Positions 1 through 59,586 of a stretch of 64,000 bases of DNA are shown here, in pieces. The notes under the pieces were generated by a model. The model searched no databases and was not told the origin of the DNA. It saw nothing but the letters and a program-made list of their open reading frames with translations. This stretch comes from Tessaracoccus sp. MC1679. Its GTDB lineage: Bacteria > Actinomycetota > Actinomycetes > Propionibacteriales > Propionibacteriaceae. Every line of letters starts with the position of its first letter. Position 1 is the stretch's first letter. The stretch is from the NCBI RefSeq assembly GCF_014164775.1, contig NZ_JACJGB010000001.1:558001-622000 (forward strand), in the 5' to 3' direction. The translations under genes were made by a program, and so were the position numbers.

Positions 1-22
1 CTGCGCAGTGCCGCCCTGCCGT
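1..22 (-). repeat. Fragment of composite two-hairpin repeat, cut by window edge
   Basis: The first 22 bases are the reverse complement of the left-arm region seen at 23165-23186 and 59208-59229 (arm word CGGCAGGGCGGC followed by ACTGCGCAG). A fourth copy of the roughly 247-bp element, in inverted orientation, therefore probably extends leftwards out of the window. Only this piece is visible. Confidence 0.6.
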
Positions 23-53
23 CCAGCACCCTCGCTGTCAGCCGTGGTTCTCG

Positions 54-174
54 ACCCTTCGAGACTTCCCCGGTCGCTTCGCGACGCGGGACCCTCACCG
101 ACCGAGCTTGGCCGCCCCTGTTTCGCTCCCTGAGGAGGGCCGCCCGCGGAGCGGCGGCGGCCGTCTCGAAGGGT
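54..174. repeat. Intergenic inverted repeat with 12-bp arms; rest of 1-241 has no gene
   Basis: Arms ACCCTTCGAGAC (54-65) and GTCTCGAAGGGT (163-174) are perfect reverse complements around a GC-rich interior. Positions 120-156 are a 37-base exact reverse-complement match to 38236-38272, and 160-176 match 38169-38185 in inverted orientation, so this is a dispersed intergenic repeat. I see no coding sequence in 1-241. Confidence 0.7.
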
Positions 175-23037: not shown

Positions 23038-23111
23038 GATGAGTTGACCCTCAGAGGATCGTGCCGTTCGACGCGCGGCGCTCACTCAAGACCTTCTCGC
23101 AAGGGTGGGGA

Positions 23112-23412
23112 ACGGCAGGGCGGCACTGCGCACGGCAGGGCGGCACCGCGCACAAGGGTGGGGAACGGCAGGGCGGCACTGCGCAGCGGTGCCCAACGCT
23201 AGGCTCGCTCGGCTGGCATGCCGCCAAGGACCAACCCAAGCCAATGCCGCCCTGCCGGTCGGCACCCGGGTGCGGAAGGGCAACAGCGGGACGACTGCGG
23301 TGAGCCGGAAGACGAGGCACGGGCGGCCTCACTCCCCGGCCACAGCCCAACCGTCACGCACACCCATTCTGTGGACAGCGGCCGCCCGTGACTCGGGTCC
23401 CGGCTCACCGCA
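23112..23412 (+). repeat. Composite two-hairpin element (copy 1) with triplicated left arm
   Basis: Module A has exact 12-bp arms CGGCAGGGCGGC (23166-23177) and its complement (23246-23257) around 68 bases. After 38 bases, module B has 33-base arms (23296-23328 and 23380-23412, about 28 of 33 paired) around 51 bases. Two additional left-arm copies precede it, starting at 23112 and 23132, and the word AAGGGTGGGGAACGGCAGGG repeats. The same layout occurs at 37886-38135 and 59209-59456. Confidence 0.85.
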
Positions 23413-23532
23413 CCAGGGGCCTGCCCGAGCCAGCGACGTCGCCCTCCCGAACGAACTACGGGCGGATGCTCAACTCCTTCCCCGATGGAATCACGGGCCG
23501 GGGTGTCCCGGAAAGGGCGATAAGGTGTCCCC

Positions 23533-37807: not shown

Positions 37808-37885
37808 ACGCTTCTATGCCGTGTCAAGTCGGGCGGCCATGTTCGATCACAGAGCATCCCGCTCCCGAGAGCAAGGGTGGAGGAC

Positions 37886-38135
37886 GTCAGGGCGGCGCCG
37901 CGTCGCGGTGCCCAACCCGACGACCACCCAACCGGCATCCCGCCCGAGCAGACCCGACCCCAACGCCGCCCTGCCGGCCCGCACCCGGGACCAGGCAACG
38001 CCACAGGAGAACGAGTGCGGGGAGACGGGAGGCGAGGCCCGGGCGGCCTCAACAACCCAACCACCAACCAGACCAGCAGCCGACACGGGACCCTGGACAA
38101 CGGCCGCCCGGGCCTCGACTCACGGCTCCCCGCAT
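37886..38135 (+). repeat. Composite two-hairpin element (copy 2)
   Basis: Module A has arms CAGGGCGGCG (37888-37897) and CGCCGCCCTG (37964-37973), around 66 bases that include the conserved CGGTGCCCAACCCGACGA. Module B has arms 38015-38048 and 38101-38135 around 52 bases, with the shared inner word CGAGGCCCGGGCGGCC. Module order and both loop lengths match copies 1 and 3. Confidence 0.85.
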
Positions 38136-38168
38136 CCGACCACGAGAACTGCGTGAAGGTGGTAGTCA

Positions 38169-38272
38169 CAACCCTTCGAGACGGCACCCGCGCCTTCGGC
38201 GGCGCGCCTCCTCAGGGAACGATGGGGACGCACCACGCCGCTCCGCGGGCGGCCCTCCTCAGGGAGCGAAAC
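38169..38272. repeat. Dispersed repeat shared in inverted orientation with 120-176
   Basis: 38169-38185 matches the complement of 160-176, and 38236-38272 is a 37-base exact complement of 120-156. An internal near-duplication (CCTCCTCAGGGA at about 38207 and 38254) lengthens this copy. Confidence 0.8.
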
Positions 38273-47400: not shown

Positions 47401-49974
<2,574 letters not shown>

Positions 49975-59012: not shown

Positions 59013-59040
59013 CGAACCGGAAGGCAACGCGAGGGCGGGA

Positions 59041-59208
59041 GACGGCAGGGCGGCACTGCGACGCGAGGCGGGAACGCGAGGGCGGGAAACGGCAGGGCGG
59101 CACTGCGACGCGAGGCGGGAACGCGAGGGCGGGAACGCGAGGGCGGCACTGCGACGCGAGGTGGGAACGCGAGGTGGGAACGCGAGGCGGGAACGCGAGG
59201 GCGGGAAA
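59041..59208. repeat. Amplified left-arm units of the composite element
   Basis: Words GGCAGGGCGGCACTGCGACG, ACGCGAGGCGGGA and ACGCGAGGGCGGGA repeat many times in shuffled order up to the start of the full element. The same kind of left-arm amplification, on a smaller scale, precedes the copy at 23166. Confidence 0.85.
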
Positions 59209-59456
59209 CGGCAGGGCGGCACTGCGCAGCGGTGCCCAACCCGACGATCACCCAACTGGCATCCCGCCCAGACAGGCTCGACCCAGGGCCGCCCTGCCGG
59301 GTCGCGCCCGAACGCGACGACGCCACGGGCAATCCAGTGCGGGGAGACGGGACACGAGGCACGGGCGGCCTCGACACCCGACCCGAGTCCAGCTGGCGTG
59401 TGCGTGCTGTGGTGGGAAGAGCGGCCGCCCGGGCCTCGTGTCCCGGCTCCGTGCAC
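59209..59456 (+). repeat. Composite two-hairpin element (copy 3, best preserved)
   Basis: Module A: 12-bp perfect arms (59209-59220 and 59288-59299), loop 67 bases. Spacer 37 bases. Module B: 34-base arms (59337-59370 and 59423-59456) with about 30 of 34 positions paired, loop 52 bases. Loop lengths agree with copies 1 and 2 to within two bases, although loop sequences differ. Confidence 0.88.
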
Positions 59457-59470
59457 CGGTCCGGGGGGTT

Positions 59471-59546
59471 TCGACGCAGCAGCGGGGGGTTCGACGCAGC
59501 AGCGGGGGGTTCGACGCAGCAGCGGGGGGTTCGACGCAGCAGCGGG
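59471..59546. repeat. 20-bp tandem repeat, about four units
   Basis: The unit TCGACGCAGCAGCGGGGGGT occurs exactly at 59471, 59491 and 59511, and a fourth unit at 59531 diverges in its last bases. Confidence 0.92.
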
Positions 59547-59586
59547 CGCTTCGCGCCGCGGCTGGCTCAACCAGCGACATACGGGA

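What the first reader, a model, noticed from the sequence alone, without database searches (positions are those of the whole stretch)
59209..59456. A dispersed ~247-bp element built of two long stem-loops, three full copies in 64 kb
At 23166-23412, 37886-38135 and 59209-59456 the same architecture recurs: hairpin A (10-12 bp perfect arms, loop 66-68), spacer of about 37-41, hairpin B (33-35 base arms, 28-30 paired, loop 51-52). A fourth, inverted fragment starts the window. Arms and loop lengths are conserved better than loop sequence, which suggests selection or copying on structure. All copies are intergenic. It could be a non-autonomous mobile element, a structured RNA, or a nucleoid or topology site. 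I do not recognise it as a named family, and novelty cannot be judged without a search.
Basis: partly seen in the sequence, partly recalled or inferred. Interest (0 to 1): 0.75.

Follow-up and report, generated by a model that had tools for sequence, protein, structure and literature searches.

The report
Structured repeat flanking HNH-nuclease genes
The window carries copies of a roughly 265-base, two-stem-loop repeat found at least 43 times in this bacterium's genome; in a sister species nearly every copy that was found sits, facing outward, beside a gene for an uncharacterised DNA-cutting protein, which hints at a new kind of self-spreading repeat system.

Summary
In detail: a ~265-bp element with two long stem-loops has three full copies in the window, a fourth cut by its start, and at least 43 in the 3.57-Mb genome (genus Tessaracoccus). 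Pairing is kept by compensatory changes and no Rfam family matches. Multi-copy full-length families were seen in 3 of 39 genus genomes.

The main result lies outside the window. In T. lapidicaptus 15 of 16 copies found (one a fragment) lie beside eleven DUF222-HNH endonuclease genes (13E12 family), all facing outward. Of 82 exact matches to one REP pattern there, 61 lie within 2 kb of those genes (1.6 expected), all outward. In another family of the order, 21 of 22 matches to another REP lie beside DUF222-HNH genes, all outward, mostly on one side. Both patterns were taken from such flanks. No Y1 transposase was found in 39 genomes.

Best reading: a structured end module of a REPtron-like unit built on an HNH nuclease instead of a RAYT; most copies here lack the gene. 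Anatomy and association are shown; mobilisation is inferred. No target duplication or exact empty site was found, and seven of eleven genomes tested lack the arrangement.

The parts
1..34 (-). last 34 bases of a fourth full copy (G000:C9:557769-558034), cut by the window start
127..173 (-). REP-type palindrome (class CCCTTCGAGAC...CTCAGGGA)
23100..23152 (+). repeated fragments of the element's 5' arm in front of copy 1
23153..23415 (+). copy 1 of the two-stem-loop element, between a subtilase gene and a phosphate acetyltransferase gene
37872..38137 (+). copy 2, beyond the 3' end of the PPDK gene; lineage-specific insertion
38172..38218 (+). REP-type palindrome about 35 nt after copy 2, the arrangement seen in 25 of 43 copies
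59026..59174 (+). tandem array of 47-bp units holding the 5' arm of the element, in front of copy 3
59196..59458 (+). copy 3 of the two-stem-loop element
59209..59220 (+). hairpin A, 5' arm of copy 3
59233..59269 (+). conserved core of loop A (contains GCCCAACCCGACGATCACCC), the part kept in the diverged G005 copy
59288..59299 (+). hairpin A, 3' arm of copy 3
59337..59370 (+). hairpin B, 5' arm of copy 3
59371..59422 (+). loop B, variable between copies
59423..59456 (+). hairpin B, 3' arm of copy 3
59462..59572 (+). 20-bp tandem repeat followed by a REP-type palindrome (TTCGACGC...CTCAACC)

Best explanation
The element ('EL') is the structured end module of a repeat system centred on a DUF222-HNH endonuclease gene (Pfam PF02720 + PF01844, the 13E12 repeat family). 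In its fullest form the gene has EL and/or REP-type palindromes on both sides, all with their 5' side towards the gene, comparable to RAYT genes flanked by REPs in a REPtron. SHOWN: the element, its pairing, its outward placement beside one clade of DUF222-HNH genes in T. lapidicaptus and beside two such genes in this genome, outward REPs beside DUF222-HNH genes in two families of the order, and no Y1 transposase hit in the genus. INFERRED: the HNH protein recognises the palindromic EL/REP DNA, perhaps through its N-terminal half, and nicks or cuts there, and repair or gene conversion copies the module to new sites. Gene-less EL-REP units, which are most copies in this genome including all in the window, would then spread in trans or be relics of units that lost the gene. 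The + strand has been kept foldable, as single-stranded DNA during copying or as RNA; which of the two is undecided.
For: Of 82 exact REP-pattern matches 61 lie within 2 kb of them (1.6 expected), 61 of 61 outward, with REPs on both sides of 9 of 11 genes. With a looser REP pattern, 60 of 61 matches within 1 kb of the 35 DUF222 genes scored point outward (my sum of its rows). Second family of the order (G248): 21 of 22 matches of another REP lie within 2 kb of 12 listed genes, 21 of 21 outward; 18 of the 21 on the gene's 5' side, 2 of 12 genes with REPs on both sides, one with none. Flank repeats in inverted versus direct sense: G248 25/2, G264 3/0, G005 9/0. The 13 EL-linked genes fall in one 17-row clade (support 99/96) confined to G000, G011, G029 and G037; 2 label changes against 11.9 in shuffles, a test that near-copies make easy. 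All five pairs of copies less than 2 kb apart in G000 are outward, one enclosing a DUF222-HNH gene, and so is one pair in G029. DUF222 sequence on the 5' side of EL in 4 of 43 copies, on the 3' side in 0 of 43. PF01797 in 0 of 39 genus genomes, while 5 of 14 control genomes ring. His, Asn and Cys positions of the HNH region are nearly invariant in 40 proteins. AF2 model: residues 43-160 resemble ParB/Noc DNA-binding domains (Z 9.0-7.3 in the six best rows), C-terminus HNH. Strand polarity: unpaired parts 64-74% A+C, fold z -4.6 on + against -2.5 on - for copy 2.
Against: The REP patterns were written from repeats seen in DUF222 flanks, and G248 was the best of seven further genomes, so proximity is partly by choice; orientation is less affected. 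In this genome only 2 of 4 clade genes have an EL and 4 of 43 copies have DUF222 sequence beside them (three further 5' hits are element-derived). In G029, which has at least ten copies, one DUF222 fragment was found beside them, and its fetched clade gene L137 has no EL (best hit E 0.73). Seven of 11 genomes show no outward flank repeats (G212, G276, G238, G136, G013, G014, G023), and at E <= 0.1 the EL model hits only L188 of 54 other loci searched. G037 has a clade gene but no EL hit. Duplication of gene plus flanks as one block would create part of the association, and tandem REPs are not independent counts. One pair of copies 2.9 kb apart is tandem. No flanking direct repeat of 11 or more bases; the empty site is not exact. 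The ParB-like match is a helical domain with Z under 13, which can be mere arrangement. Foldseek had no match at E <= 0.001. One REP near G000 L165 points inward.
Confidence: 0.5

Rival explanations
1. An ordinary non-autonomous DNA element (MITE- or REP-like) moved by an unrelated enzyme; the DUF222-HNH genes merely sit in the same repeat-rich spots or were copied along with them.
For: Most copies in G000 and those examined in G029 have no DUF222 gene beside them. In four of five fetched group-1 loci EL lies inside a REP(-)...REP(+) doublet with spacer 321-322 (424 in the fifth), against 37-48 in ten EL-less doublets, as if REPs were the moving ends. 74 REPs of this class in G000 against 0 for the reversed pattern.
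Against: Outward orientation of 15 of 15 EL and 61 of 61 REPs beside the genes, repeated with another REP in another family; clade specificity; no Y1 hit in the genus.
Confidence: 0.25
2. A structured RNA or 3'-end signal (terminator, mRNA stabiliser) spread over many operons and kept for the host's benefit.
For: 55 of 76 neighbouring gene ends are 3' ends and 1 of 38 scored copies lies between divergent genes (no genome-wide baseline was computed); compensatory changes; + strand polarity with more G-U (37) than A-C (15) cells.
Against: At PPDK the gene keeps its own hairpin beyond its stop, in G000 and in the unoccupied relatives G011 and G030 (read by eye). Avoiding promoters is also what selection against harmful insertions gives. 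Multi-copy full-length families in only 3 of 39 genus genomes.
Confidence: 0.12
3. EL encodes a guide or scaffold RNA for the HNH protein (an omega-RNA-like partner); the variable loop B would be the guide.
For: The nearest solved HNH sequences are IscB (E 0.0074, weak); conserved loop A core with variable loop B; + strand foldability.
Against: Little or no excess match between loop B and its own flanks (mean longest match 8.5 against 8.0 with other copies' flanks). The HNH match covers only the nuclease domain, whose nearest structural matches also include McrA and Cap5. EL stands on either side of the gene, or without it.
Confidence: 0.05
4. A chromosome-organisation site bound by a ParB-like protein.
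For: ParB/Noc-like fold match of the DUF222 N-terminal part.
Against: Patchy presence (multi-copy in 3 of 39 genomes) and association with a nuclease gene.
Confidence: 0.03

Closest known systems
REPtrons: RAYT (Y1 HUH) transposase genes with flanking REPs; REPINs (PMC3733652, passages read; PMC3116915, search listing only)
   Same: a gene flanked by palindromic repeats plus many gene-less copies elsewhere; inverted REP doublets in G000
   Different: the central gene is DUF222-HNH, and no Y1 hit in 39 genus genomes; flanks here are consistently outward, while PMC3733652 says that organisation and position of REPs in REPtrons vary; the unit includes a 265-nt two-stem-loop module
TIRtrons (PMC3733652, passages read)
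   Same: a gene flanked by long inverted repeats that also form a dispersed family
   Different: their gene is a tyrosine transposase
REP13E12 / 13E12 repeat family of mycobacteria (PMC13061034 and PMC10589994, passages read; family link to DUF222-HNH partly recalled)
   Same: multi-copy genes of the DUF222-HNH family; PMC13061034 reports frequent gene conversion at the mycobacterial copies and no defined biological function
   Different: no structured outward end module or REP flank is described in the passages read; mycobacterial loci were not examined here
CGTC REPs (PMC3733652, passages read)
   Same: REP families without a dedicated transposase
   Different: reported from five phyla that do not include Actinobacteria; stems of 8-9 bp; not tied to an HNH gene in the passages read
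ERIC and other intergenic palindromic elements of about 100-250 bp (recalled)
   Same: dispersed, intergenic, foldable
   Different: no partner nuclease gene is known to me for them
IscB-omega RNA
   Same: an HNH nuclease next to a structured non-coding segment
   Different: only the HNH domain matches (E 0.0074; VIA Z 5.8); no guide evidence

Membership tests
RAYT-mobilised REP/REPIN (REPtron) | Y1 tyrosine transposase gene in the genome | tested here: not met
   PF01797 in 0 of 39 genus genomes at E <= 0.001; control rings in 5 of 14 named genomes
RAYT-mobilised REP/REPIN (REPtron) | inverted REP doublets as the repeated unit | tested here: met
   ten REP(-)/REP(+) doublets with spacers 37-48 in nine loci fetched because one search showed close pairs
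RAYT-mobilised REP/REPIN (REPtron) | central gene flanked by REPs | tested here: met
   for DUF222-HNH instead of RAYT: REPs on both sides of 9 of 11 genes in G011; in G248 on both sides of 2 of 12, on one side of 9
MITE of a DDE transposase | terminal inverted repeats with target-site duplication | tested here: inconclusive
   no direct repeat of 11 or more bases flanking six composite or paired loci; shorter duplications not tested systematically; the two termini share only a weak motif (by eye)
13E12 / DUF222-HNH family (partner gene) | DUF222 plus HNH domains | tested here: met
   L096: PF02720 E 7.2e-33, PF01844 E 1.2e-5, both over cut-off; the G000 gene L025: PF02720 E 2.1e-33, HNH models just under cut-off
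Known Rfam family | match at gathering score | tested here: not met
   0 matches over the 64-kb window
Structured RNA | covariation supporting a fold | tested here: met
   10 pairs changed on both sides; 65 such cells against 21.1 shuffled; does not separate RNA from single-stranded DNA
Structured RNA | transcription | not testable with these tools
   no expression data at hand
IscB/TnpB-type RNA-guided nuclease | guide segment matching a target | tested here: inconclusive
   loop B against own flanks 8.5, against other flanks 8.0; no genome-wide target search
ParB-like DNA-binding protein (partner gene) | ParB/Noc DNA-binding fold | tested here: inconclusive
   VIA Z 9.0-7.3 over about 100 residues, under the level trusted for helical domains

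The most novel reading that the evidence does not exclude
DUF222-HNH (13E12) proteins are movers of RAYT-less REP-type palindromes in Actinobacteria: nuclease-driven, transposase-free REPtrons, of which the two-stem-loop element is an enlarged, structured end module.
Probability: 0.4. Interest if true: 0.9.

Novelty: new variant of a known kind. Interest (0 to 1): 0.72.

Why it matters
DUF222 genes have no assigned function and are common here: 37 of 39 genus genomes have a match, up to 24 in one genome, and 92 of 117 sampled genomes of the order have a relative of the T. lapidicaptus protein at E <= 1e-20. REP families without a dedicated transposase are an open question in print (PMC3733652, passages). 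A consistent outward REP/EL flank around DUF222-HNH genes in two families suggests a testable function for the proteins and names candidate DNA substrates. In the library searched, 'DUF222' as a whole word occurs in three papers. No title or abstract start in the listings points to this arrangement; of those listings I opened passages of two papers, so most listed papers were not read and one search listed only 10 of 133.

Tried and rejected
Exact 31-base pattern in genome contigs: 0 stretches. Loop A core pattern in viral contigs, and copy 2 in plasmids and phages: no match. RAYT as mover: rejected. Element as the terminator of its neighbour: weakened by the retained PPDK hairpin. Direct repeats at six composite or paired loci: none of 11 or more bases. 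Empty site by comparison with G029: alignment not clean. High-copy relatives elsewhere: G005, G002 and G030 gave one to three rows each (self, partial, or echo of the palindrome), G023 one weak row, G008, G006, G014 and G034 none. Long-hairpin scan beside other DUF222 genes: the one notable score (L180) lies in what reads as a coding stretch and was dropped. Loop B k-mer test: the genome-wide part is uninformative because other copies were not masked; only the own-flank part is used. Rows dropped: 3 of 43 copies from alignment A1 (truncated or shifted); 5 of 43 without two called flanks from the orientation count, antisense echoes of hairpin B, one of which (L157) slipped through the filter and overlaps an outward copy; of 14 Pfam DUF222 matches in G011 13 are listed and were fetched: 11 close-clade, two distant without EL (L160, L161), the fourteenth not looked at. 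The DUF222 tree uses 55 fetched rows, for many genomes one each, and warns of long branches. Genome searches score only part of the candidates, so copy numbers are lower bounds. The control loci for REP density (2 matches in 92.8 kb) come mostly from other genomes.

Full report
Observation. The inverted fragment at the window start is the end of a fourth full copy cut by the window edge. The genome (G000, 3.57 Mb, 17 contigs) holds at least 43 distinct copies. Alignment A1 has 58 copies: 40 of the 43 from G000, 10 from G029 and 8 from G011.

Structure. RNAalifold finds hairpin A (columns 16-27 with 98-109) and hairpin B (154-185 with 256-287). On the sequence-only alignment 97.3% of cells pair; sliding the partners by 1-3 columns gives 37-47%. 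Ten pairs have changes on both sides, and 65 cells do, against 21.1 in shuffles (0 of 500 as high). Related sequences can inflate such shuffles, so the slid control and the diverged relatives matter more: a copy in G030 keeps the architecture with largely different B arms (fold z -5.5), and one in G005 keeps the loop A core with exchanged arms. The + strand is the more foldable one: unpaired parts are 64-74% A+C with 2-8% T, z is -4.6 on + against -2.5 on - for copy 2, and G-U cells outnumber A-C cells 37 to 15 (18 against 9 occurrences by pair and type, suggestive only). This cannot separate RNA from single-stranded DNA.

Distribution. By BLAST 6 of 39 genus genomes have a match and three (G000, G011, G029) many full-length ones. 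The covariance model finds matches in 9 of 198 genomes of the family: those three, five more genus genomes with one or two matches each, most of them partial, and one 72% complete genome of another genus, on a short contig. At most 10 candidates per genome were scored there. Rfam, plasmid, phage and viral searches are negative.

Position and mobility. Of 43 copies, 38 had both neighbours called: 18 convergent, 19 tandem, 1 divergent; 55 of 76 neighbouring ends are 3' ends (no genome-wide baseline). Copy 2 is a lineage-specific insertion: at the same PPDK 3' end G011 and G030 have a short intergenic region with a hairpin behind the PPDK gene, while G000 has several hundred extra bases holding the element and REPs beyond its own hairpin. 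The edges are too diverged for an exact empty site. Other copies are old: C9_514221, C9_403675 and C16_196630 have an element at the orthologous place in G029, and at a fourth place (C15_175779) the G029 element is in the opposite orientation near a contig end. Twenty-five of 43 copies have a REP of the class CCCTTCGAGAC...CTCAGGGA about 35 nt behind the 3' end. Four of five fetched loci lie inside an inverted REP doublet with spacer 321-322 (424 in the fifth), against 37-48 in ten EL-less doublets. That REP class has 74 copies in the genome, 0 for the reversed pattern. Six composite or paired loci show no flanking direct repeat of 11 or more bases.

The partner gene. In G011 the gene next to most copies belongs to one family, which Pfam names DUF222 + HNH. 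All 11 close-clade genes fetched in G011 have an element 107-274 bp from the DUF222-HNH match; 4 of 11 have one on each side, one of these a fragment 1.26 kb away; all 15 elements point outward, and the sixteenth found in that genome is not near such a gene. In G000 2 of 4 clade genes have an element. DUF222 sequence lies on the 5' side of EL in 4 of 43 copies and on the 3' side in 0 of 43 (three further 5' hits fall in a part of the query frame that I judge to be element-derived). All five pairs of copies less than 2 kb apart in G000 are outward; one encloses a DUF222-HNH gene and one an unidentified ORF remnant; the next closest pair, 2.9 kb apart, is tandem. One G029 pair is outward too. 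The 13 EL-linked genes lie in one supported 17-row clade. Genome-wide, 61 of 82 exact REP-pattern matches in G011 lie within 2 kb of these 11 genes, against 1.6 expected, and all 61 point outward; REPs stand on both sides of 9 of the 11 genes. With a looser pattern, within 1 kb of 35 DUF222 genes of G011, G000, G005, G014 and G023, 60 matches point outward and 1 inward; G014 and G023 have none.

Outside the genus. I fetched flanks of DUF222-HNH relatives in seven more genomes and compared 11 in all, counting repeats shared by the two flanks in inverted versus direct sense: G011 846/45, G248 25/2, G005 9/0, G264 3/0, G136 0/1, and none in G212, G276, G238, G013, G014, G023. The G248 repeat is GGCTCCTTTCGACAAGCTCAAGGAGCGGG. 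Its 20-base core occurs 22 times in that genome; 21 lie within 2 kb of 12 listed genes and 21 of 21 point outward; 18 are on the gene's 5' side, 2 of 12 genes have them on both sides and one has none. One of the 21 lies inside a match span that reads through a stop. Both REP patterns were written from repeats seen in such flanks, and G248 was chosen as the strongest of the new genomes, so the proximity counts are partly by choice; orientation is less affected. Clustered copies are not independent, and copying gene plus flanks as a block would give part of this; such a block is however itself the unit proposed here.

Mechanism. No Y1 transposase hit is found in 39 genus genomes, so the RAYT route fails that test; other transposase families were not searched. 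The HNH-region residues are nearly invariant. The AF2 model (mean pLDDT 81.8, pTM 0.51) places the N-terminal part near ParB/Noc/Spo0J DNA-binding domains (Z 9.0-7.3 in the six best rows) and the C-terminus near Cap5, McrA, IscB and Cas9 HNH domains; Foldseek alone has nothing at E <= 0.001. I infer a palindrome-binding nuclease whose cuts promote copying or conversion of the flanking modules. No step of this was shown. A guide-RNA reading is possible but unsupported.

Literature. [quoted passage not shown] PMC13061034 (passages) reports frequent gene conversion at mycobacterial REP13E12 loci, which lack defined biological function. PMC10589994 (passages) lists REP13E12/HNH endonuclease/DUF222 among repeats found beside insertion sequences; its only mention of REPs concerns another subject. 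'DUF222' as a whole word is in three papers of the library. Searches joining DUF222, 13E12 or HNH with repeats, palindromes or Tessaracoccus listed no title or abstract start on this arrangement; most listed papers were not opened.

Verdict. Observation confirmed; interpretation partly supported; the system works like a REPtron but fails its defining Y1 test, so it is filed as a new variant, with a bolder reading kept in the section on the most novel reading.

Noticed in passing
G000 genome, e.g. L228-L236: Inverted REP doublets (REP- then REP+) with spacers of 37-48 nt, REPIN-like, in a genus without any Y1 transposase hit.
   Followed up: partly
window 59026-59174 and 23100-23152; L101: Tandem or repeated fragments of only the element's 5' arm lie in front of copies 1 and 3 and of an orthologous copy in G029.
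   Followed up: partly
alignment A1, loop B columns: By eye, similar loop B variants recur in copies that differ elsewhere, as if loops were exchanged by gene conversion.
   Followed up: no
L035 (G000:C15:148443): One copy is cut off inside hairpin B next to an open frame that looks like a transposase by eye; not tested.
   Followed up: no
G000 C15_175779 versus G029 L089: At what looks like the same intergenic region the element has opposite orientation in the two species; the G029 contig ends there.
   Followed up: no
G139:C99 (L075): A strong full copy in a 72% complete genome of another genus, on an 8.4-kb contig; either transfer or a misplaced contig.
   Followed up: no
window 48128-48221: ARAGORN reports a doubtful tRNA (anticodon gcgt) inside a long predicted gene; probably false.
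   Followed up: no
G212, G215 and other genomes of the order: Many similar DUF222-HNH relatives per genome (13 scored in G212 and G215); in G212 the upstream flanks share repeats but without the outward inverted pattern.
   Followed up: partly
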